DNA from: Polaromonas sp.
GTDB taxonomy: Bacteria; Pseudomonadota; Gammaproteobacteria; Burkholderiales; Burkholderiaceae_C
Length of the DNA stretch: 64,000 nucleotides
Direction of reading: 5' to 3'
Assembly: GCF_029945685.1 (NCBI RefSeq)
Contig: NZ_JAQSDA010000027.1
Location: forward strand, 1-64,000
Shown here: positions 9,678 through 60,467 of the stretch, piece after piece
Layout of the letters: the number at the start of each line of letters is the position of its first letter
Position numbering within the stretch: position 1 is the first letter of the stretch
Position numbers and translations under genes: made by a program
The notes under the pieces: model-generated
Databases searched by the model: none
What the model saw: only the letters and a program-made list of their open reading frames with translations
Told to the model about the DNA's origin: nothing

Positions 9678-10838
9678 TCACTTCGCGGGCGCTGCGGCGG
9701 GCGTGGCGGCGGCGGCAGATGCTACTGGATTGATAGCTGTCTGCGCATTCGGGGCAAGGGCTGCAGCCACTTTTGGCTGATAGATCGTGACCTTCTGCCC
9801 GGGCGACAGCACATGCACACCGGCGCTGACCACCAGCATGCCAGGTTGCAGGCCCGACGCCACCACCGCTTCGTTGCCGTCGGCCGTCGCGATCTGGATG
9901 GTCTGCGACTTCACCGTCATGCTGGCCTGGTCCAGCACCCAGACCGCCGTTGCCCGGCCTTCCTGGCGCAGGGCCGTGGTCGGCAGCTTGATCACCTGCA
10001 GACCCGCAGCACCCAGGCCCTGCGGCTGCACGTAAACCGTGGCGCCCAGCACCGGTGGGTCCTGGGTGGCCAGCACCACCTTCACCGGATAGGTTCGTGT
10101 GAGCGGATCGGCGCTGGCGCCCACTTCACGCACCTTGCCGTCCAGCCCGGCGTTCTGCGCCCAGACCCGCACCTTGACCGGCATGCCGACCTTGATGGCC
10201 GCCACCTTGTCTTCGGGCACGGAAAACACCACGTCGCGCGGGCCGTCGGCAGCAATGCGCAGCACCGGGGTGCCGGCAGAGACCACCTGGCCGACCTCGG
10301 CTTCCACGGCGGTGACCACCCCCGACACGTCGGCCACCAGCACGGCGTAACCGGCCTGGTTGCCCTGAACGGCCAGTTGCGACTGCGCCTGCTCAAGCTG
10401 GGCCTGCGCCGCCTTGAGCGTGGCCTCGCGGCGCTCGAGTTCAGCGCCGCTGATGAAGTTCTGGTCCCGCAGTTCCTTGTAGCGCTTGTAGTCGGCCGAG
10501 GCCAGGTCGCGCTGCGTGGCCGCCGCTGCGACCTGGGCGCGCGCCGCATCGGCTGCCAGCTTGTAGTCCTGCGGGTCCAGTTGGGCCAGCACCTGGCCGG
10601 CCTTCACACGCTGCCCGAGTTCGGCCTGCCGCCGGATGATTTTTCCGCCGACCCGAAAGCCCAGCCGCGACTCGGTCTGGGCCTTCACCTCGCCGGCAAA
10701 CTCGTAAGCACTCGCAAAGGAATCTGTCCCCACGGTCATGACCTTGACGGCACGCACCGGCTCCTCGAGCGGGGCTGGCTTGGAACAGGCGGCCAACAAC
10801 AAGGCGCTGCTGAGGACGGCAAAAACGGTTTTATTCAT
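9678..10838 (-). CDS. RND efflux periplasmic adaptor subunit (membrane fusion lipoprotein)
   Basis: 386-aa adaptor linking the RND permease to an outer-membrane channel. The N-terminus is a lipoprotein signal with lipobox LLAAC (cysteine near residue 18). The order is beta-barrel/lipoyl half (GEVKAQTESRLGFRVGGKI), a helical hairpin (about 80-160, QLEQAQSQL), the second lipoyl half and membrane-proximal domain. The last 40 residues are Ala/Pro-rich and lie on an R1 repeat copy (9721-9782), so the C-terminus appears partly repeat-derived. It is the first gene of the pump operon; an inverted repeat in the upstream region could be its operator. Confidence 0.92.
   Translation of the reverse strand: MNKTVFAVLSSALLLAACSKPAPLEEPVRAVKVMTVGTDSFASAYEFAGEVKAQTESRLGFRVGGKIIRRQAELGQRVKAGQVLAQLDPQDYKLAADAARAQVAAAATQRDLASADYKRYKELRDQNFISGAELERREATLKAAQAQLEQAQSQLAVQGNQAGYAVLVADVSGVVTAVEAEVGQVVSAGTPVLRIAADGPRDVVFSVPEDKVAAIKVGMPVKVRVWAQNAGLDGKVREVGASADPLTRTYPVKVVLATQDPPVLGATVYVQPQGLGAAGLQVIKLPTTALRQEGRATAVWVLDQASMTVKSQTIQIATADGNEAVVASGLQPGMLVVSAGVHVLSPGQKVTIYQPKVAAALAPNAQTAINPVASAAAATPAAAPAK
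9721..9782. repeat. R1 interspersed repeat, copy inside the pump adaptor gene
   Basis: Plus-strand orientation. The core TTGATAGCTG...TGCGC...GGCAAGGGCTG matches the R1 consensus (GCTATTnATTTGATAGCTG - TGCGCCCG - AAGGGCTGGAGGCC). It is read through in frame near the adaptor C-terminus. Confidence 0.8.
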
Positions 10839-10970: not shown

Positions 10971-11831
10971 ATGACTTCCGGTCCCCATCCCGACCTTGCG
11001 CAGCCACTGGCGCCCCCTTCCAGCCACTACGAAAACTTCCCCGTGGCCTCGCTGCTGTGCCCGCCGCACCTGCGTCCGGCGGTGGCGGCGATCTACTGGT
11101 TCGCCCGCACGGCGGACGACATCGCCGACGAAGGCGACGCCCTGCCCGCCCAGCGGCTGGCCGACCTGGCAGCCTGCCGCGCGGACCTGTTCGCCGCGGC
11201 GCAGGGCCGGCCGGTCTCGGCGCGCTGGCCGGGCGTCTTCGCCGCCCTGGCGCCGGTGATCGCGCAGTTCCAGCTGCCGGTGGCCTTGCTGGACGACCTG
11301 CTCAGCGCCTTCGAGCAGGACGTCGTCAAGCAGCGTTATGCCAGCGAGGCCGAATTGCTCGATTACTGCCGCCGCTCGGCCAACCCGGTCGGCCGCCTGC
11401 TGCTGCATCTCTATGGCGTCAACGATGCGGCGTCCCTGGTGCAGAGCGACCACATCTGCACGGCCCTGCAACTGATCAACTTCTGGCAAGACCTCAGCGT
11501 GGACATTCCGCGCGGACGCATCTACCTGCCGCAGGACCTGTGGGCTGCGCACGGCGTCGATGAAGCGCAACTGCAGGCCCTGGACGTGAACCCGGCCACT
11601 ACGAAATTGATAGCTGCCTGCGTCCATTCGGCAAGGGCGCGCATGCTCAAAGGCCTGCCTCTGGCAAAGAAGGTGCCGGGGCGCGCGGGCTGGGAGTTGC
11701 GCCTGGTCGTACAAGGCGGCCTGCGCATCCTCGACAAGACGGAAGCCATCGGCTTTGCCACCTTACGCCAGCGCCCCAAGCTCACGCCCCGGGATGTGAC
11801 GCTGATGCTGTGGCGCGCGATCCGGATGTAA
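10971..11831 (+). CDS. hpnC: Squalene synthesis protein HpnC (hydroxysqualene synthase)
   Basis: 286-aa trans-isoprenyl diphosphate synthase-like protein. In the HpnCDE pathway HpnC converts presqualene diphosphate to hydroxysqualene. The two Mg-binding Asp-rich motifs are present: TADDIADE (about residue 48) and the second region LQLINFWQDLSVD (about 163-175), followed by RGRIYLP. Residues around 212-223 (TTKLIAACVHSA) are encoded by an R1 repeat copy, apparently tolerated in a loop. It is the first gene of hpnC-hpnD-hpnE, 51 bp before hpnD, and divergent from the RND pump. Confidence 0.93.
   Translation: MTSGPHPDLAQPLAPPSSHYENFPVASLLCPPHLRPAVAAIYWFARTADDIADEGDALPAQRLADLAACRADLFAAAQGRPVSARWPGVFAALAPVIAQFQLPVALLDDLLSAFEQDVVKQRYASEAELLDYCRRSANPVGRLLLHLYGVNDAASLVQSDHICTALQLINFWQDLSVDIPRGRIYLPQDLWAAHGVDEAQLQALDVNPATTKLIAACVHSARARMLKGLPLAKKVPGRAGWELRLVVQGGLRILDKTEAIGFATLRQRPKLTPRDVTLMLWRAIRM
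11606..11645. repeat. R1 interspersed repeat inside hpnC
   Basis: Plus orientation: ATTGATAGCTGCCTGCG followed by GGCAAGGGC matches the R1 core. It is wholly within the hpnC reading frame and does not interrupt it. Confidence 0.75.
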
Positions 11832-12725: not shown

Positions 12726-12815
12726 GCCCCCACGCTTGTCGCTGCGCGTACTGCGCTGCCCCCCGATGGGGCGCTGCGCCTGCGGGCCGGCGGAGCCGGA
12801 CCCGCGGCCCCTGCT
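12722..12815. repeat. R2 interspersed repeat between hpnD and hpnE
   Basis: CCCCCACGCTT...TGCGCTGCCCCCCG...GGGGCG...GCGGGCCGGCGG is the reverse orientation of the element seen at 27869-27960 and 37790-37862 (GGGCCGCCCC...GCCCCCTCGGGGGGCAGCG...AAGCGGGGG). It begins at the hpnD stop codon and fills most of the hpnD-hpnE gap. An open frame through it gives a false N-terminal extension of HpnE. Confidence 0.7.
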
Positions 12816-12837
12816 GGTCAATACCGCGGGTTCCAGC

Positions 12838-14115
12838 GTGAGAGTTGCCGTCATCGGTGCCGGCTGGGCCGGCTGCGCGGCGGCGGTCGAGGCCACCCGA
12901 CTCGGCCAGCAGGTCACCGTGTTTGAAGCTGCCCGTATTCCCGGTGGGCGCGCGCGACGCGTCGACGGCCAGTGGCCCGACGGGTCGGCGCTGGCGCTGG
13001 ACAACGGCCAGCACATCCTGATCGGTGCCTACAGCGAAACGCTGCGCCTGATGGCCGACGTCGGTGCGTTTGCCGACACGGCCCTGCTGCGCCTGCCGCT
13101 GACCCTGCAATTCCCCGACGGCACGGGTCTGGCGTTCCCCCGGCTGCCCGCCCCGCTGGATGCACTGGCCGGCATTGTGCGAGCACGCGGCTGGACCTGG
13201 CGCGACAAACTCTCGTTGCTGCGCGCCGCCGTCGGCTGGCAGCTCTCGGGATTTCGCTGCGCGCCGGAGCTGTCTGTTGCGCAGCTGTGCCGCCAACTGA
13301 GCCCGACGGTGATGGCCACCCTGATTGAGCCGCTGTGTGTCTCGGCGCTGAACACGCCGGCCGACCGCGCCAGCGCCCAGGTGTATTTACGGGTGCTGCG
13401 CGATGCGCTGTTCGCCGAATCGGGCGGCTCCAACCTGTTGCTGCCGCGTGTGGACCTGAGTGCGCTGCTGCCCGACGCGGCACTGGCCTGGGTCGCGCAG
13501 CGTGGCGGCGAGGTCGGGCTCGGTCGCCGTGTGCAGGGACTGACGCGCCTGGCCGGAAGCTGGCAGGTCGATGGCGCCCTCTTTGACCGGGTGGTTCTCG
13601 CCTGTCCGCCGGCGGAAGCTGCGCGGCTGGTCGAAACAGCGGTCCTGCCCTGCCAGGCCTGGCTGGCGCACACCCGCGCATTGCAGTTTGAAGCGATCAC
13701 CACGGTGTATGCGTTTTCACCCGAAGCTCGCCTGGCGCAGCCCATGCTCACGCTGTGCGCGGGTCCACCCGACGGCGAGGCGCCGGCGCAGTTTGTGTTT
13801 GACCGCGGCCAGCTCGGCGGACCCGCCGGCCTGCTGGCCTTTGTGGTCAGCGCCAGCAGCGCCGACAAGGACGGACTGACCCGGCGCGTGCTGGCCCAGG
13901 GCGAGCGGCAACTCGGGCTGACGGCCCTGCAGGCCGTGCAGACGATTGTGGAAAAACGCGCAACCTTCGCCTGCCTGCCCGGTCTGCAGCGCCCCGCCGC
14001 GCAGGTGCTGCCGGGGCTGCTTGCCTGTGGCGACTACCTCGACGGGCCCTACCCCGCCACACTGGAAGGCGCCGTGCGCTCGGGTTTGCAGGCCGCCAGA
14101 ATTGCTATCAAATAA
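12838..14115 (+). CDS. hpnE: Squalene-forming FAD-dependent amine oxidase HpnE
   Basis: FAD enzyme that reduces hydroxysqualene to squalene. I chose GTG at 12838, giving VRVAVIGAGWAGCAAAVEA, which places the GxGxxG dinucleotide-binding motif at the N-terminus as in the family (425 aa). The frame is open 34 codons further upstream, but those residues are encoded by the R2 repeat. FAD contacts include GGRARR and the C-terminal GDYLDGPYPATLEGAVRSG. The last codons and the TAA stop come from an R1 copy that continues to the stop codon of the convergent GST gene. No squalene-hopene cyclase gene is nearby. Confidence 0.9.
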   Translation: MRVAVIGAGWAGCAAAVEATRLGQQVTVFEAARIPGGRARRVDGQWPDGSALALDNGQHILIGAYSETLRLMADVGAFADTALLRLPLTLQFPDGTGLAFPRLPAPLDALAGIVRARGWTWRDKLSLLRAAVGWQLSGFRCAPELSVAQLCRQLSPTVMATLIEPLCVSALNTPADRASAQVYLRVLRDALFAESGGSNLLLPRVDLSALLPDAALAWVAQRGGEVGLGRRVQGLTRLAGSWQVDGALFDRVVLACPPAEAARLVETAVLPCQAWLAHTRALQFEAITTVYAFSPEARLAQPMLTLCAGPPDGEAPAQFVFDRGQLGGPAGLLAFVVSASSADKDGLTRRVLAQGERQLGLTALQAVQTIVEKRATFACLPGLQRPAAQVLPGLLACGDYLDGPYPATLEGAVRSGLQAARIAIK

Positions 14116-14162
14116 ATAGCTGCTCCCGAAATACCGGCAAGGGCTGGAGCCCAATTTGTCTA
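14101..14162. repeat. R1 repeat between convergent hpnE and GST genes
   Basis: ATTGCTATCAAATAAATAGC starts the element and GGCAAGGGCTGGAGCCC is the second half. The element supplies the TAA stop of hpnE at its left end and the TAG stop of the GST gene (14162-14160) at its right end. Confidence 0.85.
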
Positions 14163-14807
14163 TAGATTCCGGCTGCTGTCCCGCCGCGCCAGCGCGCGCA
14201 CCTGTCGCTGCGCGGGCCGGTCCAGGCAACGCGAAAGCCAGGCGCTGAGCTGCGGACATTGCCCGTTCAGTTCGCCCGAACGCTGCACCCAGGCGAGCAC
14301 CGAAGCCACGCAGATGTCGGCCACGGTGAAGCGCTCGCCGGCCAGGAAATGGCGGTCCTGCAGTTGCTGATCGAGTACGCGCAGCGCTGGCAGCAGGCGC
14401 CGCTCGGCCTCCTGCGCCAGCTGCGGTTTGCGCCGCTCCTCGGGCATGGCCACGGTGTGCATCAAAAACGTCAGGGCATCTTTCTCGCATTCGGTCACGG
14501 CCCAGAAGCTCCAGCGCAGGATCTCGGCCTGTTCGGCGTGGTTCACCGCAGCAAGCGATGGGGCGCCGTCACCCTGGAAACGCCCGGCCAGGTAAAGCGC
14601 GCAGGCCATGGACTCCCAGACCAGCACGCCGTCATCGTCGATCACCGGGATATGCCCGTTGGGATTGAGTGCCAGAAACGCCGGCGTGCGGGTTGCGCCG
14701 CCCTGGTAAGGCTGGGCAATGTGTTCGTAGCTCAGGCCCAGTTCCTGCGCCACCCACAGCGGCCGCGATGCGCGCGAAGCCGCGATGCCGTAGATCTTCA
14801 GGGTCAT
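14160..14807 (-). CDS. Glutathione S-transferase family protein
   Basis: 215-aa cytosolic GST-like protein. The N-terminal thioredoxin fold (residues 1-80) has the glutathione-binding segment GHIPVIDDDGVLVWES, with a cis-Pro and the ES pair typical of the gamma-glutamyl site. The all-helical C-terminal domain contains FTVADICVASVL (the N-capping Asp box). [16 protein letters not shown] suggests Ser rather than Cys near the catalytic position. Its start overlaps the upstream HAD gene stop by 4 nt, so they are translationally coupled. Substrate unknown. Confidence 0.9.
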   Translation of the reverse strand: MTLKIYGIAASRASRPLWVAQELGLSYEHIAQPYQGGATRTPAFLALNPNGHIPVIDDDGVLVWESMACALYLAGRFQGDGAPSLAAVNHAEQAEILRWSFWAVTECEKDALTFLMHTVAMPEERRKPQLAQEAERRLLPALRVLDQQLQDRHFLAGERFTVADICVASVLAWVQRSGELNGQCPQLSAWLSRCLDRPAQRQVRALARRDSSRNL

Positions 14808-24449: not shown

Positions 24450-24483
24450 TCCGAGCCAGCTCGTTGGCGCCGGGATGATGCAT

Positions 24484-24541
24484 AAAATCGGCCTCCAGCC
24501 CTTTGCCCACGAGCGCTGCCAGCTATTAAATCAATAGCAAA
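24484..24541. repeat. R1 repeat between convergent GNAT and hydrolase genes
   Basis: Minus orientation. The reverse complement reads TTTGCTATTGATTTAATAGC followed by TGGCAGCGCTC and AAAGGGCTGGAGGCCGATTT, close to the R1 consensus along its whole length. Its end abuts the TGA of the hydrolase gene (24544-24542). Confidence 0.88.
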
Positions 24542-25408
24542 TCAGCCCGCCGCGTCGATGAATGCCGCCACCCGATCCAGCTGATCGGGCACGTTGAGCG
24601 CCGGCGCATGGCCGCAGCCGGCCACTTCCACCACCTGCAGCCGGCCTGCGGCGCCCGGGCCGCGGGTCTGCATCTCGGTGGTGGTCTCGCGCAGCACGAG
24701 GTCGGACTCGGCGCCGCGCAGGCACAACACGGGAATCTCGAGCGCGTCGTAATGCTCCCAGATCAGGTAGTCGTCCGGGTGGTGGGTGAACTGCTGCACC
24801 ATGGCCGGGTCGTAGTGGGGTGTCAGGCGGCCGTCGGGCAGGCGGCGCGCCGAGGTTTCCGCCATGCGGCGCCACTGGGCGTCGCTCAGCCAGCCATAAG
24901 GCTTGTAGACCTGCCGGAAGAAGGCCTCGAGCGCCAGCATGGTGTCAAAGGCGGGCGGGTTGCCTGCATAGGATCTGATCCGCGCGACCGCCGGGTCGGC
25001 AATCTGCGGCGCCGTGTCGTTGAGCACCAGACTCTGGATGCGGCCTTTCATGGCCGGTTCGAACAGGCCGGAGGCGCAGACCGTGCCGATGGCGCCGCCC
25101 ATGGACGTGCCGACCCAATGCGCCCTGTCGATGTGCAGTTGCTCAAAGAGGTCTGTCGCAATACGCGCGTAGAACGCCAGCTGGTATTCCGCTTTCGGTT
25201 CGGGGCTCCACTGGCTCAGGCCGCGTCCGATGGTGTCGGGGCAGATCACGCGGTAGCGGCCGCTGAGGTGCGCCGCCAGTTCGTCCATGTCGCGTCCGGT
25301 ACGGGCCAGCCCGTGCCAGGCAATGACGGTGGCACTGTGCTGGCGGCCCCATTCGGTGTAATGGATCTCGCGCCCGGCGCAGGTCAAATACTCAGACGTG
25401 AATTGCAT
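24542..25408 (-). CDS. Alpha/beta hydrolase
   Basis: 288 aa from the ATG at 25408 (MQFTSEYLTCAGREIHYTEW). A longer frame to 25468 has no conserved residues. The nucleophile elbow is GTSMGG (Ser about 115). The oxyanion HG motif is AWHGLARTGRDMDEL, and the catalytic His is in VAGCGHAPALN near the C-terminus with an acid in ESDLV. Substrate unknown. The stop is at the border of an R1 repeat. Confidence 0.85.
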   Translation of the reverse strand: MQFTSEYLTCAGREIHYTEWGRQHSATVIAWHGLARTGRDMDELAAHLSGRYRVICPDTIGRGLSQWSPEPKAEYQLAFYARIATDLFEQLHIDRAHWVGTSMGGAIGTVCASGLFEPAMKGRIQSLVLNDTAPQIADPAVARIRSYAGNPPAFDTMLALEAFFRQVYKPYGWLSDAQWRRMAETSARRLPDGRLTPHYDPAMVQQFTHHPDDYLIWEHYDALEIPVLCLRGAESDLVLRETTTEMQTRGPGAAGRLQVVEVAGCGHAPALNVPDQLDRVAAFIDAAG

Positions 25409-25476
25409 GAAGCGGACTCTCTCGTTGATGGATCTTGTCCAGATACACGACAGTGAATCGGACCGCACTCACCCTG

Positions 25477-31953: not shown

Positions 31954-33453
<1,500 letters not shown>

Positions 33454-33534
33454 GCGCAGATGGTAGCGCGGGTAGCGCGGCGCTTGCGCCAGCAGCGCCG
33501 GCCAGGTGCATCACACACCGACCGGCGTGTAGCC

Positions 33535-33600
33535 TGCTATTTTTTTGATAGCTGCTTGCGCCCGCGGATAAAGGGCTGAGCACCTATTTATATATATGCC
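33535..33600. repeat. R1 interspersed repeat between tctA and the PAS regulator
   Basis: Plus orientation: TTTTTTTGATAGCTGCTTGC, then GCCCGCGG and AAAGGGCTGAGCACC. It lies after the tctA stop and before the regulator on the same strand. Confidence 0.88.
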
Positions 33601-33606: not shown

Positions 33607-35109
33607 TCAGGCCGCGAGCCGACGTGCCGACCAGCGTCTGGCCAGGCGCGGCAGGATCAGCACCGCCAGCACCACCACGATCAGGATCACCGACATGGGC
33701 CGCTGCAGAAACACCATCGCACTGCCCTCGCCGATCGACATGGCATTGCGCAGCTGCGCTTCGGCCAGCGGGCCCAGGATCATGCCCACCACCACGGGCG
33801 CGGTCGGAAAATCGAAGCGCCGCATCACCACCCCGAGCACACCAATGCCATAAAGCAGGAACAGGTCAAACGCACTTTGCCGCATGCCGTAGACGCCCAC
33901 CGTGGCAAAAATCAGGATGCCGGCGTACAGGTAAGGTTTGGGAATCTTCAGCAGTTTGACCCACAGTCCCACCAGCGGCAGGTTCAGCACCAGCAGCATC
34001 ACATTGCCGATGTAGAGCGACGCAATCAGCGCCCACACCAGGGCCGACGACGAGGTGAACAGTTGCGGCCCCGGCTGGATGCCGTAATTCTGGAAGGCCC
34101 CGAGCAAAATCGCCGTGGTGTTGGAGGTCGGAATGCCCAGCGTCAGCAGCGGGATCATGGCCGCGGTGACCGTGGCGTTGTTGGCGGCCTCGGGCCCGGC
34201 CACCCCTTCAATGGCGCCGGCCGTGCCGAACTCGGCCTGGTCGCTGCCCTTGGCCAGCTTTTTCTCGGCGGCATAACTGAGGAAGGTCGGGATCTCGGTA
34301 CCACCGGCAGGAATGCAGCCGAACGGTGCGCCAATCGCCGTGCCGCGCAGCCAGGCCGGCCAGGAACGGCGCCAGTCCCGGCCTGTCATGTGGACCCGGC
34401 TCATCTTGTTCTGCGACTCGGCCACCCGGCCCTCGTAAAGCACGGCGTACATGGCTTCAGCCACCGCGAACAGGCCGACCGCCACCAGCACGATCTCGAC
34501 GCCGTCCAGAAGCTCGGGCACACCAGCGGTGTAGCGCGCCTGGCCGGAAATCTGGTCCAGCCCGACCAGGCCCGCTGCGAGTCCGACAAACAGGGCTGTC
34601 AGGCCGCGCACCGTGCTTTTGCCGAGCACCGCACTGACGGTGGTGAAGGCCAGCAGCATCAGCATGAAATATTCGGGCGGGCCGAGCTTGACGGCCAGTT
34701 CCGCCACGACGGGCGCAAACAGGGTGACCATCACCGTGGCAATCGTGCCGGCCACAAACGAGCCGATGGCCGCCGTGGCCAGCGCCGCACCGGCGCGACC
34801 GCTCTTGGCCATGCGGTTGCCTTCCATCGCCGTGACCATGCTGGCCGTTTCCCCTGGCGTGTTCAAGAGGATGGAGGTGGTGGAGCCGCCGTACATGGCG
34901 CCGTAATAAATGCCGGCAAAAAAGATCATGGAGGCCGTGGCCTCGACCTTGGCGGTGATGGGCAGCAGCATGGCCACCGCCACAGCGGGCCCGATGCCGG
35001 GCAACACGCCGATGGCCGTACCCAGCGCACAGCCGACAAAACACCACAGCAGGTTGACCGGTGTGGCCGCCGTGGCGAAACCCTGCAACAGTTGATTGAA
35101 GATGTCCAT
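33607..35109 (-). CDS. tctA: Tripartite tricarboxylate transporter permease TctA
   Basis: 500-aa large membrane subunit (about 11-12 TM helices) from the ATG at 35109 ([14 protein letters not shown]). The TctA signatures [19 protein letters not shown] and [16 protein letters not shown] are intact, and a second related half contains PGCIPAGG-like [21 protein letters not shown]. It works with the small subunit TctB and the periplasmic TctC. The substrate is probably a di- or tricarboxylate but cannot be told from sequence. Confidence 0.93.
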
Positions 35110-39263: not shown

Positions 39264-39311
39264 AGCACAGGTTTTCCCTTCCCCGGCATGGCGGTGCGCG
39301 CGAGGTCAGGC

Positions 39312-39719
39312 ATGCGTCTTGACAAGTGGCTCTGGGCCGCGCGTTTCTACAAGACCCGCTCGCTGGCGAGCGACGAAATCGGCAAGAACCGTGTGCGGGT
39401 CAACGGCCAGGACGCCAAGCCGGCGCGCGAAGTGAAAGCCGGCGACACGGTGGCGATGCGGCAGGGCCCGGTCACGCGCACCGTGCTGGTCCGGGGCCTG
39501 AGCCAGCAGCGCGGGCCGGCGCCGGTGGCGCAGCAGCTCTATGAAGAAACGCCTGACAGCATCAGGCTGCGGGAAGCGGCGGCCGAGCAGCGCCGCCTGA
39601 CCGCCGAGCCGGCCGGCAGCCTGGAGCAAGGGCGCCCCACCAAACGCGACCGGCGTTCGTTGGACAAGGCCCAGAACAAGGCCTGGGGTGACCGCTGGAG
39701 CGCCTCGGTCGACTCCTGA
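39312..39719 (+). CDS. hslR: Heat-shock protein Hsp15, S4 RNA-binding domain
   Basis: 135 aa from ATG 39312 (MRLDKWLWAARFYKTRSLA), the family-typical N-terminus and S4 domain. Hsp15 binds 50S subunits carrying stalled nascent chains. The basic C-terminal tail (RPTKRDRRSLDKAQNKAWGD) is usual. It ends where an R1 repeat begins and is convergent with the TRAP permease gene. It lies 48 bp after tctE. Confidence 0.93.
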   Translation: MRLDKWLWAARFYKTRSLASDEIGKNRVRVNGQDAKPAREVKAGDTVAMRQGPVTRTVLVRGLSQQRGPAPVAQQLYEETPDSIRLREAAAEQRRLTAEPAGSLEQGRPTKRDRRSLDKAQNKAWGDRWSASVDS

Positions 39720-39782
39720 AATGCTCCTTTTTTGATAGCTGTTTGCGCCTGCCCCACAAGGGCAGGAAGCCATTTTTTCCTA
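39720..39782. repeat. R1 repeat filling the gap between hslR and the TRAP permease
   Basis: Plus orientation: TTTTTTGATAGCTGTTTGCG ... CACAAGGGCAGGAAGCC ... TTTTTTCCTATAAA. It starts immediately after the hslR stop, and its last bases provide the TAG stop of the convergent TRAP gene (39782-39780). The whole 60-bp intergenic space is the repeat. Confidence 0.88.
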
Positions 39783-42389
39783 TAAAGAAGAGGCTGCGGC
39801 GGGCGGCGGCACCGGGCCCCGGCCACGTTGCATGCGCCTGCCCTGGGACCACCAGACCAGCAGCGCCAGCAGCAGCGCGGGCAGGTAAAACCAGTGCGGC
39901 GTCGCCCTGTCGGTCGGCACCTTGATGGCGGTCACGTCCCAGCCCTGCTCCACCCCGGCCTTGGCGGCACGCGAACCGAACTTGGCCTGGCCGATCTGAA
40001 GCGTCTCGCCCAGCGGAACCAGTTGCAGGCCAGCGTCAGCCAGGCGCTTGCGGCCTTCCGGACCCTTGTCGCCGAGCTGCACGGCCACGGTCTTGACGAT
40101 CTCCCGGCCTTCCAGTGTGGTGCCGCGGGTGACCATCACCACCCGGCCATCGCTCTCCACATTGCGCGCAATCTCGAACACCTCGGTCGGTTTGGCGTCG
40201 CGGTATTCGGGTGCGATCTGGTCCATGAAAAAGTCCGGTCGGAACAACAGGATCACGGCCATCAGCAGCATCGCGCTTTCCCACAGCCGGCTCTTGATAC
40301 GAAACCAGTTCATGGTGACGGCTGCAAACAGCAGCGTGGCCAGGATGCTCGCGGTCACGATGCAGAAAAAGGAGAAAGCCCCGCCGACATCAATCAGCAG
40401 CAATTGCGGATTGAAGATCCAGATGAAGGGCAGAATCACCGTGCGCAACGCATAGATGGACCCCTGGATGCCGGTCTCTATGGCGTCCTCCCCCGAGATG
40501 GCGGCCGCCGCAAAGGTGGCCAGCCCCACCGGCGGCGTGATGTCTCCCATGATGCCGTAATAAAAGACGAACAGGTGCACCGCGATCAGCGGAATCACCA
40601 GCCCCGACTGCGCGCCGAGGTCCACCACCACCGGCGCCATCAGCGTGGCCACCAGCACGTAGTTAGCCGTGGTCGGCACGCCCAGGCCCAGCACGAGGCA
40701 GGAAAACGCAATGAACAGCAGCATCACGATCACGTTGCCCTGCGAAACAAACTCGACAAATTCCGTCATGCGCAGGCCCAGGCCCGTCAGCGTGATGCCA
40801 CCGACGATGATGCCGGCGGTCGCCGTCGCCACGCCGATGCCGATCATGTTGCGCGAGCCGTCGTGAAAGCCGTCGACCACCGAGCGCCAGCCCTCGTGCC
40901 AGGCGTCCGGCGTGTGGGTGCGGCGCAAGGCGTCGATGATCGGCCGCTGCGACATCATCAGCACGACGAGGATGGTCACCGCCCAGAAAGCCGCCAGCGC
41001 CGGCGACATCTCCTCGACCATCAGGCACCAGATCAGCGTGCCAATCGGAATGAGGAAGTGCAGGCCGGCACGCACGGTGGGCCAGGTGTCCAGCGCCTTC
41101 GGGTGGTCGATGTCGATGTCCTGCGCCAGGTCGGGGCTGCGCGCCGCCTGGTGCAGGCACACGCCGTACAGCGCCATGACCGCCAGCACGATGACATAGG
41201 GTGCGGCGCCGCCCAGCATGGCCTTCATGCCTTCGAACAGGTAATAAAGTGAGCCGATCACGATGATGCTGCCCGAGATGCCCAGGGCATTGCGCAGCAC
41301 GCGGTCGCGCAGTGGCTTGGGTTCACGCCGGATGATGGGCTGCATGCCCATTTTCAGCGCTTCCAGGTGCACGATGTAGAACAGGCCCAGGTAAGAAAGA
41401 ATGGCCGGCAGGAAGGCGTGGCGCACGATGTCGGTGTAGGGAATGCCGACGTACTCCACCATCAGGAAGGCGGCCGCCCCCATGACAGGCGGCATGATCT
41501 GGCCGTCCACCGAGGACATGGTCTCGATGGCGCCGGCCTTGACCCCGCCGTAGCCGGATTTTTTCATCAGTGGAATGGTGAAAATCCCCCCCGAAACCAC
41601 GTTGGACACCGACGAACCCGAGATCATGCCGTTGAGCGCCGACGACACCACCGCGACCTTGGCCGGCCCGCCGCGCAAATGGCCCAGCGCCGCAAAACTC
41701 ACCTGCATCATGTAGTTGCCGCCACCCGCGCGGTCCAGCAAGGCACCGAACAGCACATACACAAAAATGGTGCCGGCCGACACGCCCAGCGCAATGCCGT
41801 ACACCCCCTCGGTGGTCAGCCACATGTGCGACACCAACCGGTTCAGCGAGGCGCCGCGGTGAGACAGGACGTCGGGCAGCCAGGGGCCGAGCATGCTGTA
41901 AGCCACGAAGATCACGGCCAGCGCCGCCATGGGCCAGCCGACCGCACGGCGCGTGGCCTCCAGCAGCAGCAGCATGCCGGCGCTGGCCACCACCACGTCC
42001 ATCGTTGTCGGCTGGCCGGGACGGGTGGCGATCTGTGCATAAAACAGCATGATGTAGGCGCCCGCAAACGCGGCCAGCAAGGCCAGCACCCAGTCCAGCG
42101 CCGGCACGTGGTCGCGCGGTGAACTGCGCAGGGCGGGCCATGCCAGAAAAGCGAGGAACAGCGCGAAGCCCAGGTGGATGGCGCGCGCCTCGGTGTCATT
42201 GAGGATGCCAAAGCCCAGCGCAAACGGCAAGGGCGAGGCATACCAGTACTGAAACAGCGCCCAGACGAGCGCCACGGAAAAAATGATGCCGGCGGCAAGA
42301 CCCGTTGGCTTGCGCCCGCCGGTATCCACCTCGGCGACGAGTTGCTGCAGCGCTTCAGGCGCTTTTTCGATATCGGTTGCCATGGTCAT
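39780..42389 (-). CDS. TRAP transporter fused permease (4TM-12TM) with C-terminal DUF3394
   Basis: 869-aa inner-membrane protein combining the small DctQ-like and large DctM-like subunits. The DctM part has GMISGSSVSNVVSGGIFTIP and a second related motif LVLGLGVPTTANYVLVATL. The last 170 residues (about 690-869) form a DUF3394-type soluble domain ending in a TM segment (FYLPALLLALLVWW). ATGs at 42389 and 42383 are both possible. It pairs with the TAXI binding protein upstream. A hairpin with U-tract lies in the 117-bp gap between them. Confidence 0.92.
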   Translation of the reverse strand: MTMATDIEKAPEALQQLVAEVDTGGRKPTGLAAGIIFSVALVWALFQYWYASPLPFALGFGILNDTEARAIHLGFALFLAFLAWPALRSSPRDHVPALDWVLALLAAFAGAYIMLFYAQIATRPGQPTTMDVVVASAGMLLLLEATRRAVGWPMAALAVIFVAYSMLGPWLPDVLSHRGASLNRLVSHMWLTTEGVYGIALGVSAGTIFVYVLFGALLDRAGGGNYMMQVSFAALGHLRGGPAKVAVVSSALNGMISGSSVSNVVSGGIFTIPLMKKSGYGGVKAGAIETMSSVDGQIMPPVMGAAAFLMVEYVGIPYTDIVRHAFLPAILSYLGLFYIVHLEALKMGMQPIIRREPKPLRDRVLRNALGISGSIIVIGSLYYLFEGMKAMLGGAAPYVIVLAVMALYGVCLHQAARSPDLAQDIDIDHPKALDTWPTVRAGLHFLIPIGTLIWCLMVEEMSPALAAFWAVTILVVLMMSQRPIIDALRRTHTPDAWHEGWRSVVDGFHDGSRNMIGIGVATATAGIIVGGITLTGLGLRMTEFVEFVSQGNVIVMLLFIAFSCLVLGLGVPTTANYVLVATLMAPVVVDLGAQSGLVIPLIAVHLFVFYYGIMGDITPPVGLATFAAAAISGEDAIETGIQGSIYALRTVILPFIWIFNPQLLLIDVGGAFSFFCIVTASILATLLFAAVTMNWFRIKSRLWESAMLLMAVILLFRPDFFMDQIAPEYRDAKPTEVFEIARNVESDGRVVMVTRGTTLEGREIVKTVAVQLGDKGPEGRKRLADAGLQLVPLGETLQIGQAKFGSRAAKAGVEQGWDVTAIKVPTDRATPHWFYLPALLLALLVWWSQGRRMQRGRGPVPPPAAASSL

Positions 42390-47924: not shown

Positions 47925-48869
47925 TCAGGCGGCGAAATGCAAACAGTCCCCGGCCCGCGTCACATGGCCCGACGCGATCTTCAGATGAATCTGGTGGCCC
48001 CGCGTGGTGCAGGCCGCCACCTGGGAGAGCAGCTGTCCGAGCTGCGCTGCGCTGGGCGTGGCCTGGTGGTCCTCGCGCAGCCAGTGGCGCAGTGCATTGG
48101 CCTGCCGCGCCAGCGACAAGCCCTGCAATGACCTGATCACGGGCGGCCTGCCCAGCGCGGCGAGATCTTCACGCGCCACCTCGACCAGCAGGGACTGCGC
48201 CTGGGCGGCATGCTGGGCGCTGCGCGCAAAGGTTTCGCGAAACTGCGGAAAGGTCTCGGCCAGTGCCGGCAGGAGGCGCGCGCGGATGCGGTTACGGGTG
48301 AAGCGCTCGTCGGTGTTGGTGGGGTCTTCAATGAAAACAGCCCCCCTTTGCGCCAGCCAGGCGCGGATCGCAGGGCCTGGAACCTGCAGCAAGGGCCGGT
48401 AGTACATCAGCCCGTCGCGCTGCCAGCTCGCGGGCATGGCGCTCAGACCGGGCAGGCCCGCGCCGCGGCTGAGTGCCAGCAGCATCGTCTCGACCTGGTC
48501 GTCTGCATGTTGCGCAAGCGCTATGCTTTTAATAGCTGGTTGCGCCCGCTCCTCAAGGGCCAGAGCACGAAAAGCCTCATAACGTGCCTTGCGGGCAGCG
48601 TCTTCCGGGCTGTCGCCCGGCGCATGACCGGCCATGACGCGACTCACGCGCAAAGGCACCTGCAGGTGCGCACACACAGCCTCACAATGGCGGGCGAAAT
48701 CATCGGCAGCAGCCTGCAGTCCGTGGTGCACATGCACCGCCCTCACCTGCCCCGGCCACTTCTCGGTGCAAGCCAGCAGTAGGGCCGTGGAATCGGCGCC
48801 GCCGCTGTAAGCAACGGCCAGAGGAAGTTGCGGGGAAAAGACGCGCAGGGCGTCGTCAACGGTGGCCAT
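47925..48869 (-). CDS. tilS: tRNA(Ile)-lysidine synthetase
   Basis: Converts C34 of tRNA-Ile(CAU) to lysidine. The 314-aa protein has the PP-loop VAYSGGADSTALLLAC at the N-terminus and HADDQVETMLLALSRG. It lacks much of the longer C-terminal domain of E. coli TilS, as in many betaproteobacteria. Residues about 102-118 (ALEERAQPAIKSIALAQ) just before HADDQ are encoded by an R1 repeat. It follows accA. Confidence 0.94.
   Translation of the reverse strand: MATVDDALRVFSPQLPLAVAYSGGADSTALLLACTEKWPGQVRAVHVHHGLQAAADDFARHCEAVCAHLQVPLRVSRVMAGHAPGDSPEDAARKARYEAFRALALEERAQPAIKSIALAQHADDQVETMLLALSRGAGLPGLSAMPASWQRDGLMYYRPLLQVPGPAIRAWLAQRGAVFIEDPTNTDERFTRNRIRARLLPALAETFPQFRETFARSAQHAAQAQSLLVEVAREDLAALGRPPVIRSLQGLSLARQANALRHWLREDHQATPSAAQLGQLLSQVAACTTRGHQIHLKIASGHVTRAGDCLHFAA
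48510..48570. repeat. R1 interspersed repeat inside tilS
   Basis: Plus orientation: GCTATGCTTTTAATAGCTGG, TTGCGCCCGC, TCAAGGGCCAGAGC. It is in frame, immediately before the codons of the conserved HADDQ motif. Confidence 0.88.
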
Positions 48870-49907: not shown

Positions 49908-50606
49908 TCAGGACTTCTCGGCACCCAGCACCGGCAAGGGGTCCAGCGAGCGCCAAATATACCAAGTTGCGACACTGCAAAACGGCGCCCAGGCGGCGGC
50001 CACTTCGCGTGCGTCGCTGCGGCTGACCGATTCACCGGAAAAATAATTCTGGCTGATGCCGTTGATCAGGCCCACGTCGTCAAGCGGCAGCACATTGGGC
50101 CGGCGCAGGTAGAAGATCAAAAACATTTCGGCGGTCCAGCGGCCAATGCCGCGAATCGCGACCAGTTCGGCAATGATGGCTTCGTCTTCCATCGCCTCCC
50201 AGTCCTTGACGTGCACCGTACCGGCGTCGAAGTGAATCGCCAGATCAACCAGGTACTCGACCTTGCGCGCGCTCAGGCCGGCAGCGCGCATGTCGTCCAC
50301 CTTGAGCTTGAGCACGTGGCCGGGGGTCATTTTTTTCGGCAACGCGTCAAAACGGTGCCAGACCGTCTGCGCCGCCTTCACGGAGATCTGCTGACCCACG
50401 ATACTGCGTGCCAGCGTGCTGAAGGCATCCCCGCGGGACTGCAGGCAGGCGTCGCCGAACCGGGGGATCAGGCGTTTCATGACCCGGTCCTTCTTGACCA
50501 GGTGTTTGCAGGCCTCCGCCCAGTAGCTCGGCACGATGGTCAGCGCCGGCTCCGCGACCTCGGCCAGTTCGGTGCTGGCCGGGCCGCTTTTTACTATCTT
50601 TTTCAT
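49908..50606 (-). CDS. DNA-3-methyladenine glycosylase II (HhH-GPD, AlkA-like)
   Basis: Base-excision repair glycosylase of 232 aa. The helix-hairpin-helix is VAIRGIGRWTAEMFLIF, followed by the catalytic Asp in LPLDDVGL (about residue 186). VGQQISVKAAQTVW is also conserved. The first codons (MKKIVKSG) lie in an R1 repeat and have no clear ribosome site, so the true start may differ slightly. It lies between cysS and accA, a common betaproteobacterial order. Confidence 0.9.
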   Translation of the reverse strand: MKKIVKSGPASTELAEVAEPALTIVPSYWAEACKHLVKKDRVMKRLIPRFGDACLQSRGDAFSTLARSIVGQQISVKAAQTVWHRFDALPKKMTPGHVLKLKVDDMRAAGLSARKVEYLVDLAIHFDAGTVHVKDWEAMEDEAIIAELVAIRGIGRWTAEMFLIFYLRRPNVLPLDDVGLINGISQNYFSGESVSRSDAREVAAAWAPFCSVATWYIWRSLDPLPVLGAEKS

Positions 50607-50655
50607 AGCTGGTTGCGCCCGTCCGTCATGGGCTGAAGACCTTTTTTTATTGAAA
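50585..50655. repeat. R1 interspersed repeat between cysS and the glycosylase gene
   Basis: Plus orientation: TACTATCTTTTTCATAGCTG, GTTGCGCCCG, CATGGGCTGAAGACC, TTTTTTTATTG. It covers the start codon region of the glycosylase and reaches to within 7 bp of the cysS stop. Confidence 0.88.
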
Positions 50656-50661
50656 CCTTCG

Positions 50662-56734: not shown

Positions 56735-56743
56735 GCGGGCGCC

Positions 56744-57526
56744 ATGCTGAACTGGTTGCGCCAGCTGCTCGGACGCACGCCACGTGCCGACACCATTCCC
56801 GACGCCCTGTGGCAGGCAACGCTGGCCGCCCACCCTTTTTTGATGGAACGTCCGGAGGCGGAGCGTCTGCAGTTGCGCCGCCTGGTGGCCGAGTTTCTGG
56901 TCCACAAGGAATTTACCGGTGCGCACGGCCTGGCGGTCACCGACGAGATGGCGGTGGCCATTGCCGCGCAGGCCTGCCTGCCGGTGCTGCACCTGGGCCT
57001 GGACTGGTACAGCGACTTTGTCGGCATCGTGGTTCATCCCGGGCAGATGATCGCGCGCCGCGAAAGGCAGGACGCCAGTGGCGTCGTGCATCAGTACCGC
57101 GAGGTGCTTTCCGGCGAAGCCATGGAGCGCGGCCCGGTCACGCTGAGCTGGCAGGACGTGGCCTCGGCCGGCGCGCTGGCCGGCCATGGTTACAACGTCG
57201 TGATCCACGAGTTCGTCCACAAGATCGACATGAAGGACGGCGCCGCCGATGGTTGCCCGCCCCTGCCCTCGCGTGCCGCGCACAAGGCCTGGCACGCGGT
57301 GATGCAGCCGGCTTATGACACTTTTCGTGAGCAGGTCACCATGGCCGAACGTTTCGGCGGCGAGCCGCCCTGGCTGGATGCCTATGGCGCGACGGCACCG
57401 GCAGAATTTTTTGCGGTCAGTTGTGAAGCCTACTTCGTGAACCGCGAGCGCTTCACGCAGGACTTTGCGGCATTGACTGCGCTGTTTGACCAGTTCTTCA
57501 AGGTCAATCGGCCTGCAGCCCTTTAA
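56744..57526 (+). CDS. mtfA: MtfA-type zinc-dependent peptidase (M90)
   Basis: 260 aa. The zinc site is VVIHEFVHKIDMKDG (HExxH, about residue 155), with FLVHKEF and a downstream EFFAVSCEAYF acid. MtfA binds Mlc in E. coli; a role here is unknown. Its last codons and TAA stop (VNRPAAL) fall in an R1 repeat copy. Confidence 0.92.
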   Translation: MLNWLRQLLGRTPRADTIPDALWQATLAAHPFLMERPEAERLQLRRLVAEFLVHKEFTGAHGLAVTDEMAVAIAAQACLPVLHLGLDWYSDFVGIVVHPGQMIARRERQDASGVVHQYREVLSGEAMERGPVTLSWQDVASAGALAGHGYNVVIHEFVHKIDMKDGAADGCPPLPSRAAHKAWHAVMQPAYDTFREQVTMAERFGGEPPWLDAYGATAPAEFFAVSCEAYFVNRERFTQDFAALTALFDQFFKVNRPAAL

Positions 57527-57564
57527 GGACGGTCGCAGTTAGCTACTGAATCAATAGCAAATTG
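57505..57564. repeat. R1 repeat at the 3' end of mtfA
   Basis: Minus orientation; the reverse complement reads TTTGCTATTGATTCAGTAGC, TAACTGCGACCG, AAAGGGCTGCAGGCCGATT. It supplies the mtfA stop codon. Confidence 0.85.
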
Positions 57565-57625: not shown

Positions 57626-57658
57626 CTTGATCAGCGCTTGATCAGCGCTTGATCAACG
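57626..57658. repeat. Three tandem 11-bp units at the DUF349 gene stop codon
   Basis: CTTGATCAGCG three times, the last with one change. On the minus strand, the 11-bp period shifts frame at each unit, so the TGA stop at 57644-57642 lies in the array and may be repeat-made. Confidence 0.85.
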
Positions 57659-60467
57659 CCTTCAGCACATTCTGCAGGCGCCGCACATGCGCCGCGTCAT
57701 AGGGCGCGGCCAGCACCTTGGCAGCGTCCTCACCCCAGGTTTGCGCCGGCGCCGGATCGTTGCGTTTGGTCAGCAACACCAGTTGCAGCATGCGGCGCGC
57801 GCTGAGGTGTTCGGCCGGGGTCGGCAGCTCGGCGGCGATTTCCAGGCGCAGCAGGGTTTCTGCTGCATCCCCTTTGGGGGCGGACGACAGGGCCTTCATC
57901 CACGCGCTGCGTGTGGCCGGCGTCACCAGCTTGCCCAGGGCCTGCGTATCCGGCAGTAGCGTCGGGTCGCGTTTTTCCCAAGCCGTCAGCAGGTGCGTGA
58001 GCACCTCGCCGTGCGCCTGCTCGGACAGTTTGCGCAAGGCCTGCTGCGCATGCTCAAAAGCTTCGCGCTGCGCGCGGAAGGCGGCGTCGCCCAGTCGCGG
58101 GCCGCGCTCTTCATAGGCCGGCCGGTCGCTGAAACGGCTTTCGCGCTCGGGGCGGTAGGGTTCGAACTTGTTGTCGGCGGGCCGGTTGCCGCGGCCGTCG
58201 GGCTTGCCGCCACCGGGGCGCGCGTCCTTGCGGTCGCCGAACTTGCCGCCGCGGCCTGCAGGCGCCGCCTCGGCCCTGCGCATGCCCGGGCGGTCATCGC
58301 CGCGCATGGCCACCACCGGTTTGGCGGGCTTAGGGGCTGGAGCAGGCGGCGTGGCAGCGGCTGGCGGCTGGTCGCCCTCCTCTGCCGCAGGTTTTGCTGC
58401 TTCTGCTTCTGCTTCTGCGTCCGCGGTCACAGCGTCATCCGCTATGCTTTCAGGAGCTGCTGGCGCAGGTGTATCAAGGGCTTGCGCCTGATTTGGATCA
58501 ACATCTGGCGCGGCGGCGGCTTCGGGAGCGGCGGCGGGGGCAACAGGTGCCGCCGGCTTGAACTGCCCGCGCAGACCGGCTTCCAGGTCGGCCATCGCGG
58601 TACGGATTTTCTGCACGTCGCCCGTCGCATTGGCCGCGTCCAGGGCTTTGGACAGCTCGAGCACCAGACGGTCATGTTCGCCCAGGGCCGACGCGGCTTT
58701 TTCACGCTCGGCGGTCTTGCGCTGGAAGGCGTCGTCGATCGGCTTGCGGAACGCATCCCACAGTTTTTGCTCCTGCTTGCGCTCGACAGGCACGGCCTGC
58801 GCCTCGTGCTGCCAGCGTTGCTGCAAGGCCTTGACCGCGTCAATACGCAGTTGCGGTTCGGCGCCCAGCACCTGGGCTTCCTCGATCATGGCTTTGCGGT
58901 GCGCCAGGCTCTCGGCGCGTGCCGCTTTGAGCGGCGCATCGGCGGCGTCCATCGCGGCCTTCCACTGCGGCTGGATTTCGGCAAAGGCTTTTTCGCCGAG
59001 GTGGCCGGCAGCCGTCCACTTCTCGACAAAACCGTTGAGGCTGCGAATCTGGAACTTCCAGTCGGTGTTGCCCTTGTTGGCCTCGGCCCAGGCCTGCACC
59101 TCGTCGATCAGCGCGCGGCGCTCGGCCTTGACGGCTTCGCTTTGCTCCTTGACCTTCTCGAGCCAGACCTCGACCACCTTGTGCGCTTCGTTGCAGGCGT
59201 CGTCAAACCGCTTCCACAGCGCGTGGTTGGGGATGCCGCCCTGGTCACTGGTTTTCCAGAGTTCGCGCATGGCGCGCAGCGCCTCCTGCTGCTTGCGCCC
59301 GCCCAGGGGCTTGGCCACCAAGGCTTCGGCCTTGGCCACCAGTTCCTCGCGGATCTGGTCGGCACGCCAGCGCTGCCAGCCTTCGAGTTCGCCGGCCGCC
59401 GTCAATGCGGCATGGGCAGCGGCTTCGAGCGCGCTGTCGATGTTGCGGATGTTCTCCTTCAGCGCCTGGCGCAGCTCGGCCGCCACCTTGGGCGTGGACT
59501 TGCCATGGCCTTCGGTGACTTCATGCTCGAGCTTGGCCAGCGCGGCCTGCACGATGGCCGCTGATTTTTCACGCATGTCCTTGAGCACGGCGGGATCGAT
59601 CTTGACCTTGGGCGCACGCGCGGGCTGCTCGCCGGCAGCGGCATCGCCGCCCCGCGGCGTGCCGCGCGCGCTGCGCAGCTCATCGGCCCAGACAGGGACT
59701 GCCGGCAGCGGCGCTGCGGCGTCTTCGGCGGCCGCAACGGCCAGCGACAACGCGCCCTGAAAGGCTTCCCACACCGCCAGCAGCTGGCCGCGCGAGGCGT
59801 CGAGCAGCGGCGGGAACTTGGCGTCCACGCTGGGCCAGTTCGCGTCCTGCGCGAGTTCGTCGGCCTGGGCCTGCCAGTGCGTCACGTCGGCGCGCAGGGC
59901 TTCCCATACACCTTGTGCGTCGCGCCAGGGTTTGGTCGACAGCACTTCAATGCGCTGGGCAATCAGCACGGCGGCTTCGCGCTGCACCTGGGTGCGGTGC
60001 TGCAGGTCTTCAATCGTCTTGACGCGTTCTGCCAGCTGGGCTTTCAGGCCGGCCAGCGGCTCGCGCGACAACGGTGCGCCGGCCTTGGCGGCATCACGCT
60101 GCCAGGCCAGCGCGTCGGCCATGTTGAGCTTTTTCAGGGCCAGCAGGGCATTGCCCTTTTCAGCCCACTCGGCGGCCGCGGTCTCCTGGCTTTTCAGGCG
60201 CTTGGCTTCGTCGAGCTTTTCCTTGAGCGGCTTGGCCGCGCCCTTGTCACGGTTGGCCAGATCCTTGTAGACCTCGGCCATCTGCTCGGCCGTGGGTCCG
60301 GTGGCGAGCCACTCGCGAATGCGCGTGGTGCGTTCGCCCGAGGTGGGTGCGGAGAAAGCCCCGCCCGTCAGGCCGTCGAGCGGATGGTTGTCGGCGCTCT
60401 TGGTGGAAGGCGTTTTCACGGCGGGGGTTTCGGGCTTGGCAGATTTGGACATGGGGAAACGCAGCAT
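57642..60467 (-). CDS. DUF349 domain-containing protein
   Basis: 941 aa from ATG 60467 (MLRFPMSKSAKPETP); 60452 is an alternative and a frame open to 60623 lacks conserved residues. It is almost fully helical, with several DUF349-like repeats (about residues 300-620; e.g. LWKRFDDACNEAHKVVEVW, QWKAAMDAADAPL, KLWDAFRKPIDDAFQRK), then an Ala/Pro/Glu linker and a Gly/Arg-rich stretch (about 740-800). The linker includes R1-derived residues (DPNQAQALDTPAPAA). Function unknown; cytosolic, perhaps nucleic-acid binding given the Arg/Gly region. Confidence 0.82.
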   Translation of the reverse strand: MLRFPMSKSAKPETPAVKTPSTKSADNHPLDGLTGGAFSAPTSGERTTRIREWLATGPTAEQMAEVYKDLANRDKGAAKPLKEKLDEAKRLKSQETAAAEWAEKGNALLALKKLNMADALAWQRDAAKAGAPLSREPLAGLKAQLAERVKTIEDLQHRTQVQREAAVLIAQRIEVLSTKPWRDAQGVWEALRADVTHWQAQADELAQDANWPSVDAKFPPLLDASRGQLLAVWEAFQGALSLAVAAAEDAAAPLPAVPVWADELRSARGTPRGGDAAAGEQPARAPKVKIDPAVLKDMREKSAAIVQAALAKLEHEVTEGHGKSTPKVAAELRQALKENIRNIDSALEAAAHAALTAAGELEGWQRWRADQIREELVAKAEALVAKPLGGRKQQEALRAMRELWKTSDQGGIPNHALWKRFDDACNEAHKVVEVWLEKVKEQSEAVKAERRALIDEVQAWAEANKGNTDWKFQIRSLNGFVEKWTAAGHLGEKAFAEIQPQWKAAMDAADAPLKAARAESLAHRKAMIEEAQVLGAEPQLRIDAVKALQQRWQHEAQAVPVERKQEQKLWDAFRKPIDDAFQRKTAEREKAASALGEHDRLVLELSKALDAANATGDVQKIRTAMADLEAGLRGQFKPAAPVAPAAAPEAAAAPDVDPNQAQALDTPAPAAPESIADDAVTADAEAEAEAAKPAAEEGDQPPAAATPPAPAPKPAKPVVAMRGDDRPGMRRAEAAPAGRGGKFGDRKDARPGGGKPDGRGNRPADNKFEPYRPERESRFSDRPAYEERGPRLGDAAFRAQREAFEHAQQALRKLSEQAHGEVLTHLLTAWEKRDPTLLPDTQALGKLVTPATRSAWMKALSSAPKGDAAETLLRLEIAAELPTPAEHLSARRMLQLVLLTKRNDPAPAQTWGEDAAKVLAAPYDAAHVRRLQNVLKALIKR
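58436..58500. repeat. R1 interspersed repeat inside the DUF349 gene
   Basis: Plus orientation: GCTATGCTTTCAGGAGCTGC, TGGCGCAGG, TCAAGGGCTTGCGCC. A diverged copy in frame in the low-complexity linker. Confidence 0.65.

What the first reader, a model, noticed from the sequence alone, without database searches (positions are those of the whole stretch)
9721..58500. R1: an interspersed ~60-bp repeat found at least ten times in 64 kb
Copies at 9721, 11606, 14101, 24484, 33535, 39720, 48510, 50585, 57505 and 58436 share GCTATT-N-ATAGCTG, TGCGCCCG and AAGGGCTGGAGGCC. Occurrence in both orientations and at diverged ages points to a past or ongoing mobile or amplified element. I know of no name for it, so it may be poorly described.
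Basis: seen in the sequence. Interest (0 to 1): 0.75.

Follow-up and report, generated by a model that had tools for sequence, protein, structure and literature searches.

The report
Dispersed 68-bp DNA motif in Comamonadaceae
The ten repeats are real copies of a 68-base DNA motif scattered by the hundred through chromosomes of one bacterial family; it looks like a mark kept in place rather than a jumping element, and what reads it is unknown.

Summary
A profile trained on 30 copies outside the window finds exactly the ten listed places. The motif spans 68 bp, has 272 exact cores in this 4.74-Mb genome, and is abundant in some Comamonadaceae genomes (30 or more cores in 21 of 120).

Ongoing mobility is not supported. 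Copies within a genome are about 0.55 identical on average and only slightly more alike than independent draws from the column profile. In aligned stretches, 11 of 12 copies are also detected in the nearest species compared, about 91% identical. Against motif-free homologues, coding copies change length by 0 to 51 bp, not 68. Informative columns evolve slower than uninformative ones at the same sites. One A/T tract is TTT or AAA, rarely mixed. Six stretches (300 kb) of three megaplasmids have none.

I read it as a duplex-DNA recognition motif maintained in place: an uptake-sequence-like signal or a chromosome-protein site. Two fragments are in print as 'potential novel motifs' (PMC5217627). 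A fossil REP/MITE-like origin stays open: some intergenic sites differ by 56-104 bp between carriers and non-carriers.

The parts
9717..9784 (+). R1 copy; inside the 3' part of ORF 9678-10838 (-), HlyD-type adaptor by Pfam
   Evidence: (44.7 bits, bounds projected from the model)
11594..11661 (+). R1 copy; inside ORF 10971-11831 (+), squalene/phytoene synthase family by Pfam; weakest of the ten
   Evidence: (27.5 bits)
14100..14167 (+). R1 copy; covers the stop of ORF 12736-14115 (+) in the mechanical ORF list
   Evidence: (40.7 bits)
24475..24542 (-). R1 copy; starts at the stop codon of ORF 24542-25468 (-), alpha/beta hydrolase family
   Evidence: (58.3 bits)
33532..33599 (+). R1 copy; between ORFs 31954-33453 (-) and 33607-35190 (-)
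   Evidence: (43.7 bits)
39719..39786 (+). R1 copy; fills the gap between convergent ORFs 39288-39719 (+) and 39780-42389 (-)
   Evidence: (58.7 bits, bounds projected)
48516..48583 (+). R1 copy; inside tilS, ORF 47925-48869 (-); four codons longer than the six motif-free congeners in the alignment
   Evidence: (44.5 bits)
50589..50656 (+). R1 copy; covers the start codon of ORF 49908-50606 (-), HhH-GPD family
   Evidence: (53.4 bits)
57495..57562 (-). R1 copy; covers the stop of ORF 56744-57526 (+), M90 peptidase, facing ORF 57642-60623 (-)
   Evidence: (30.1 bits)
58437..58504 (+). R1 copy; inside ORF 57642-60623 (-), DUF349 protein, low-complexity part; weak in G004 (11.7 bits)
   Evidence: (28.9 bits)

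Best explanation
R1 is a 68-bp duplex-DNA recognition motif of Comamonadaceae chromosomes that is maintained in place: existing sequence is drawn toward the motif and then kept, instead of a unit being inserted. Supported by comparison: slower change of informative columns at orthologous sites, almost no copy genealogy, little length change at coding sites, an A/T tract that may be TTT or AAA, absence from plasmid stretches. Inferred: a DNA-reading factor exists. The mechanism I think most likely is that of a DNA uptake sequence: a receptor prefers DNA carrying the motif, and homologous recombination spreads better matches. A chromosome-architecture protein is nearly as likely. About 0.5 for 'maintained in place, read as duplex DNA'; about half of that for the uptake version.
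For: At 11 G000-G004 sites informative columns agree in 263/285, uninformative in 203/275, flanks in 1040/1208; the contrast holds within A/T and within G/C bases and the true register ranks 1 of 161 offsets. 57 copies found by their left half alone show right-half columns from 0.93 down to background. Nearest-neighbour identity 0.687 against 0.666 for shuffled columns in G000. LeuRS: the match grades from none to 40 bits in 24 sequences of congeners while the linker varies by at most 18 bp, and the ends lie on the codons AM and FDKE. TilS +12, +36, +51 bp against motif-free congeners. Columns 39-41 TTT or AAA 66, mixed A/T 7 in G000; same direction in 6 of 6 sets, background share 0.45-0.52. 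Orientation 52 same, 59 opposite in co-directional gaps. 0 copies in 300 kb of plasmids.
Against: Nearest-neighbour identity exceeds shuffles in 5 of 5 sets. Intergenic carriers are 56-68 bp longer than G013 and G007 at one site and 100-104 bp longer than G013 at another, as an insertion would be. With G485 (4 sites) informative columns do not exceed flanks: 93/104 against 400/439. The tract at -4..-2 is near background in G000 (33 homopolymer, 26 mixed). 68 bp is longer than any uptake sequence I recall, and density is about one per 5.6 kb. Competence genes were not tested.
Confidence: 0.5

Rival explanations
1. Fossil REP/MITE-like mobile family: an ancient amplification, perhaps by a Y1 (RAYT-type) transposase acting on hairpins, now inactive; survivors were trimmed and partly co-opted.
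For: Counts from 0 to 187 within one genus. Intergenic length differences of 56-104 bp at two sites. Inverted pairs of cores at fixed spacing in G111, and close pairs in G471 and G444. Y1 gene in 20 of 21 motif-rich against 69 of 99 other family genomes. One of 15 Y1 loci has a copy nearby (L187, 18.3 bits).
Against: No young burst; 11 of 12 copies shared with G004; no motif seen near the Y1 gene of G000; G401 has 105 cores and no listed Y1 match; column-specific constraint after speciation; small length change at coding sites.
Confidence: 0.3
2. Chromosome-architecture or supercoiling site: bound by a nucleoid protein or gyrase, as proposed for BIME/REP elements (recalled), favoured between converging genes.
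For: Per gap 59/241 convergent, 111/732 co-directional, 27/238 divergent in five genomes (p 0.003); in G000:C7 21 convergent and 4 divergent. Published fragments show the same bias. TTT/AAA tract. Chromosomal copies only, as far as sampled.
Against: No convergent excess in G427 (4/68 gaps against 9/66 divergent). No replichore polarity in G111. Within one genus some near-complete genomes have 0-3 cores, odd for a general nucleoid factor.
Confidence: 0.22
3. RNA-level element: terminator or mRNA 3'-end structure.
For: Often touches stop codons. Two possible hairpins, the second kept with different letters in different genera. Mean folding z -1.0 to -1.5 in three of four sets. Covariation z 7.1 for columns 12-15/26-23 in mixed contigs, 4.2 and 3.7 for second-hairpin stems in G334 and G000.
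Against: Folding z -0.2 in G000; unrelated stems score as high within genomes (z 3.9 in G000, 5.0 in G334) and G427 shows none above 1.7; orientation random to transcription; 96 of 296 copies inside ORFs, 41 sense and 55 antisense; no Rfam family at gathering score on a copy in the window.
Confidence: 0.08

Closest known systems
Spaced motif pairs GCTTAT(N)5AAGCG (Acidovorax ebreus) and ATAGCT(N)22CAAAAG (Polaromonas naphthalenivorans), 'potential novel motifs' in PMC5217627
   Same: Both lie in register inside R1 (columns 12-27 and 0-33; my reading). 114 copies with 44 convergent and 4 divergent; 125 copies with 34 convergent (section 13 read).
   Different: Reported as two unrelated short pairs; no joint family, boundaries, conservation or mechanism. 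Supplements not read.
DNA uptake sequences (USS of Pasteurellaceae, DUS of Neisseriaceae; recalled)
   Same: In-place motif inside and between genes, both orientations, A/T tracts, lineage dialects, inverted pairs.
   Different: R1 is far longer and sparser; no uptake data; competence genes not tested.
REP/BIME/REPIN with RAYT (Nunvar 2010 PMC2817692, passages by search only; details recalled)
   Same: Hundreds of copies, hairpins, gene ends, inverted pairs in some genomes.
   Different: No close copies, no gene-linked copies at the G000 Y1 gene, 68 bp, column-specific constraint. The six Comamonadaceae-type names searched do not occur in PMC3733652.
Bordetella/Betaproteobacteria BRE (PMC3110155)
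   Same: Short repeat reported also in Comamonadaceae, some copies inside genes.
   Different: About 90 bp, G+C 63.7-78.9%, often tandem (section 14 read); R1 consensus about 40% G+C, 68 bp. BRE letters not seen, so not aligned.

Membership tests
REP/REPIN-RAYT | RAYT gene flanked by the repeat | tested here: not met
   L052: no hit in 3.3 kb; 1 of 15 Y1 loci has a copy at 18.3 bits
REP/REPIN-RAYT | Repeat abundance requires a RAYT gene | tested here: inconclusive
   20 of 21 motif-rich and 69 of 99 other genomes have a Y1 match
REP/REPIN-RAYT | Inverted pairs at fixed spacing | tested here: inconclusive
   66-bp pairs in G111, close pairs in G471 and G444; not seen in the window
MITE / insertion element | Fixed-length insertion with occupied and empty sites | tested here: inconclusive
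   Coding sites 0-51 bp; one intergenic site 56-68 bp, another 100-104 bp, others scatter from -227 to +240
MITE / insertion element | Target-site duplication | not tested
   No clean recent empty site was found to read one from
MITE / insertion element | Groups of near-identical copies | tested here: not met
   Share of copies with a neighbour at 0.9 or more: 0.00 in seven of nine sets, 0.05 in G318 and G334
DNA uptake sequence | Spread in place without insertion | tested here: inconclusive
   Coding sites support it, some intergenic sites do not
DNA uptake sequence | Preferential uptake of DNA carrying it | not testable with these tools
   Needs an uptake assay
DNA uptake sequence | Scarce in foreign DNA | tested here: met
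   0 copies in 300 kb of three plasmids; phage result not decisive
BRE | About 90 bp, G+C 63.7-78.9%, tandem runs | tested here: not met
   R1 68 bp, consensus about 40% G+C, dispersed; BRE values

The most novel reading that the evidence does not exclude
R1 is the DNA uptake (self-recognition) sequence of a further bacterial family, far longer than the known ones, with genus dialects, spreading through chromosomes by biased uptake and recombination instead of transposition.
Probability: 0.22. Interest if true: 0.87.

Novelty: new variant of a known kind. Interest (0 to 1): 0.62.

Why it matters
A motif of this length kept at hundreds of places per chromosome, partly inside conserved proteins, implies an unidentified DNA-reading factor in a large environmental family. 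If it is an uptake signal it marks who exchanges DNA with whom; if an architecture site, it maps the chromosome. It also shows that a high-copy dispersed repeat need not be a transposon: length-sparing copies and column-specific constraint are simple tests.

Tried and rejected
Replichore polarity: G111 (100 listed positions of 127) has no split better than shuffles (imbalance 24; 63% of 300 shuffles as large). All-plus runs printed for one-contig genomes look like a listing effect: one search shows minus hits between them in G111. In G000:C7 orientations do cluster (15 runs, 27.8 expected, z -3.7); unexplained, no clear match to GC skew.

RAYT as mover: unlinked in G000 and with a counter-example. 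RNA function: see rivals. Hunt for a genome with young copies: G334, G384, G422 and G427 stretches were fetched; no burst in G334, G384 or G427; in G422 six cores were seen and no identity statistic was computed. Phages: 90 viral stretches match the pattern, 48 reach 20 bits; hosts unknown, nothing concluded. Plasmid similarity search with a window stretch gave ordinary gene matches only. Length comparison for the squalene-synthase ORF failed: the only true homologue in hand also carries a weak motif. A second ORF in G384 and G435 (family not tested) keeps its length, but G437 retains a degenerate motif there.

Literature: searches (10 of 10; open-access library) found no description of the whole element. 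PMC5217627: passages and section 13. PMC3110155: abstract, passages, section 14. PMC2817692: passages only. PMC3733652: term search without hits. Others: listings only.

Caveats: copies were first gathered with the core pattern, so columns 0-6 and 10-13 are biased; the half-model test covers the right half well (n=57) and the left poorly (n=9). G318 and G427 stretches were chosen around copies. Gene calls are my own simple ORF picks. In one search some targets score 0 though aligned (33532 in G004 scores 31.7), so its 'absent' count is too high. Site 39720 dropped out because its flanks did not pair. One search counts pairs in both directions; searches use one. One search used the first 100 of 181 contig copies; the first 60 of each set (42 in G318). 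Motif density on the chromosomes of the three plasmid hosts was not measured here; 300 of about 971 kb of plasmid was scanned.

Full report
Check of the observation. The core ATAGCTGNNNGCGC occurs 272 times in the genome, the reversed pattern 3 times.

Anatomy. In four copy sets (G000 87, mixed contigs 181, G318 42, G334 61) information runs from about column -16 to +51 around ATAGCTG and falls to background outside. Order: TTGCTAT, A/T tract, ATAGCTG, three variable bases, GCGC, a variable stretch, a complementary G/C block, GAGGCC, a second A/T tract, AAA. Two hairpins are possible. The second has dialects: GCGCTT...AAGCGC in Acidovorax-like copies, GCGCCC...GGGC in Polaromonas-like copies and here. 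G111 holds inverted cores exactly 66 bp apart; G471 and G444 hold cores 25 bp apart.

Distribution. In 300 genomes of the order, counts above 30 occur in 4 genomes, all in the window's family (G000, G111, G222, G312); outside the family the highest is 16. In 120 family genomes 21 have 30 or more cores. In one genus of 41 genomes counts run from 0 to 187, with 3 cores in two genomes called 100% complete.

No sign of ongoing movement. Mean pairwise identity of copies is 0.51-0.56 in nine sets; copies with a neighbour at 0.9 or more are 0.05 in G318 and G334 and 0.00 elsewhere. In G000 the nearest neighbour averages 0.687 against 0.666 with columns shuffled; the excess is small but present in 5 of 5 sets. 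In stretches aligned with G004 (about 91% identity) G000 has 12 copies: 11 are detected in G004 at 24.5-60.2 bits, and 58436 aligns at 11.7 bits; G004 has no extra copy inside those stretches. With G485 it is 4 of 4.

Coding copies do not look like plain insertions. In TilS the motif-bearing forms are 4 codons (G000, G004, G010), 12 (G012) and 17 (G015) longer than six motif-free congeners. In LeuRS the match grades from none to 40 bits over 24 sequences, the linker differs by at most 18 bp, and the motif's ends lie on the conserved codons AM and FDKE. A response-regulator linker in G017 has the length of the motif-free G000, G004 and G014 forms. Against solved structures LeuRS gains about 2 and acetoacetyl-CoA ligase at most 5 codons in the stretch (counted by eye). 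Between genes the picture differs. At 50589 five carriers are 56-68 bp longer than G013 and G007; at another site two carriers are 100-104 bp longer than G013. Further sites scatter from -227 to +240 bp. Insertion or deletion therefore does occur between genes.

Constraint. At 11 G000-G004 sites, columns informative in other genomes are identical in 263/285, uninformative ones in 203/275 (p 4e-9), flanks in 1040/1208 (p 0.004); informative exceed uninformative at 10 of 11 sites, not in TilS. The contrast holds within A/T and within G/C bases, and the true register ranks first of 161 offsets. With G485 (4 sites) informative exceed uninformative (93/104, 70/100) but not flanks (400/439). In 57 copies found by their left half only, right-half columns range from 0.93 to background, which uniform decay of one master would not give.

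Duplex reading. Columns 39-41 are TTT or AAA / mixed A/T: G000 66/7, contigs 134/16, G318 27/6, G334 40/4, G384 18/1, G427 34/3; the background share of AAA/TTT among A/T triplets is 0.45-0.52. A or T type here is independent of the type at -4..-2 in 6 of 6 sets (Fisher p 0.24 or more), so it does not mark subfamilies. The tract at -4..-2 itself is near background in G000 (33/26). Orientation is 52 same, 59 opposite in co-directional gaps; 41 sense, 55 antisense inside ORFs. These fit a protein reading duplex DNA better than an RNA. Covariation of the second hairpin is the main point on the other side: strong across genera, modest and not unique within genomes.

Place. Of 296 copies in five genomes 197 are intergenic, 96 inside ORFs, 3 unassigned; per gap convergent 59/241, co-directional 111/732, divergent 27/238 (p 0.003). 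The bias is strong in G000 and absent in G427. Six 50-kb stretches of three Comamonadaceae megaplasmids hold 0 copies at 18 bits or more, against 69 in 384 kb of G000.

Known work. PMC5217627 (section 13) lists GCTTAT(N)5AAGCG in Acidovorax ebreus (114 copies) and ATAGCT(N)22CAAAAG in Polaromonas naphthalenivorans (125 copies) as potential novel motifs; both fit R1's register. Fragments are therefore in print; my ten searches found no account of the whole. BRE (PMC3110155) differs in length, G+C and arrangement.

Verdict. Supported by comparison: a real, constrained 68-bp motif of many Comamonadaceae, without recent copying and with length-sparing coding copies. Inferred: a DNA-reading factor and spread in place. 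Open: uptake signal, architecture site, or co-opted fossil of an old mobile family.

Noticed in passing
L233:2287-2415 (G384): A different stretch of about 120 bp recurs many times at 81-90% identity in G384 and its congeners, apparently another dispersed repeat family.
   Followed up: no
window 63359-63490 (+): ZMP/ZTP riboswitch aptamer by Rfam, 52.9 bits.
   Followed up: no
G000:C7 (L053-L068): R1 orientations come in runs (15 runs, 27.8 expected, z -3.7), without explanation; G111 shows 58 runs in 100 copies.
   Followed up: partly
L226 (G334), about 18098-18596: Four R1 copies at steps of about 165 bp, a local tandem duplication.
   Followed up: no
L201-L210 (G111): Inverted R1 cores 66 bp apart enclosing an inner dyad TTCAGAT...ATCTGAA, a longer palindromic form.
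   Followed up: partly
G334: Most cores of all genomes counted (610) and 20 Y1_Tnp matches, many of IS200-like length; whether the two are linked was not tested.
   Followed up: no
G000:C7, about 58.9-85.7 kb: A 27-kb stretch without any R1 copy in a contig with about one per 5.5 kb.
   Followed up: no
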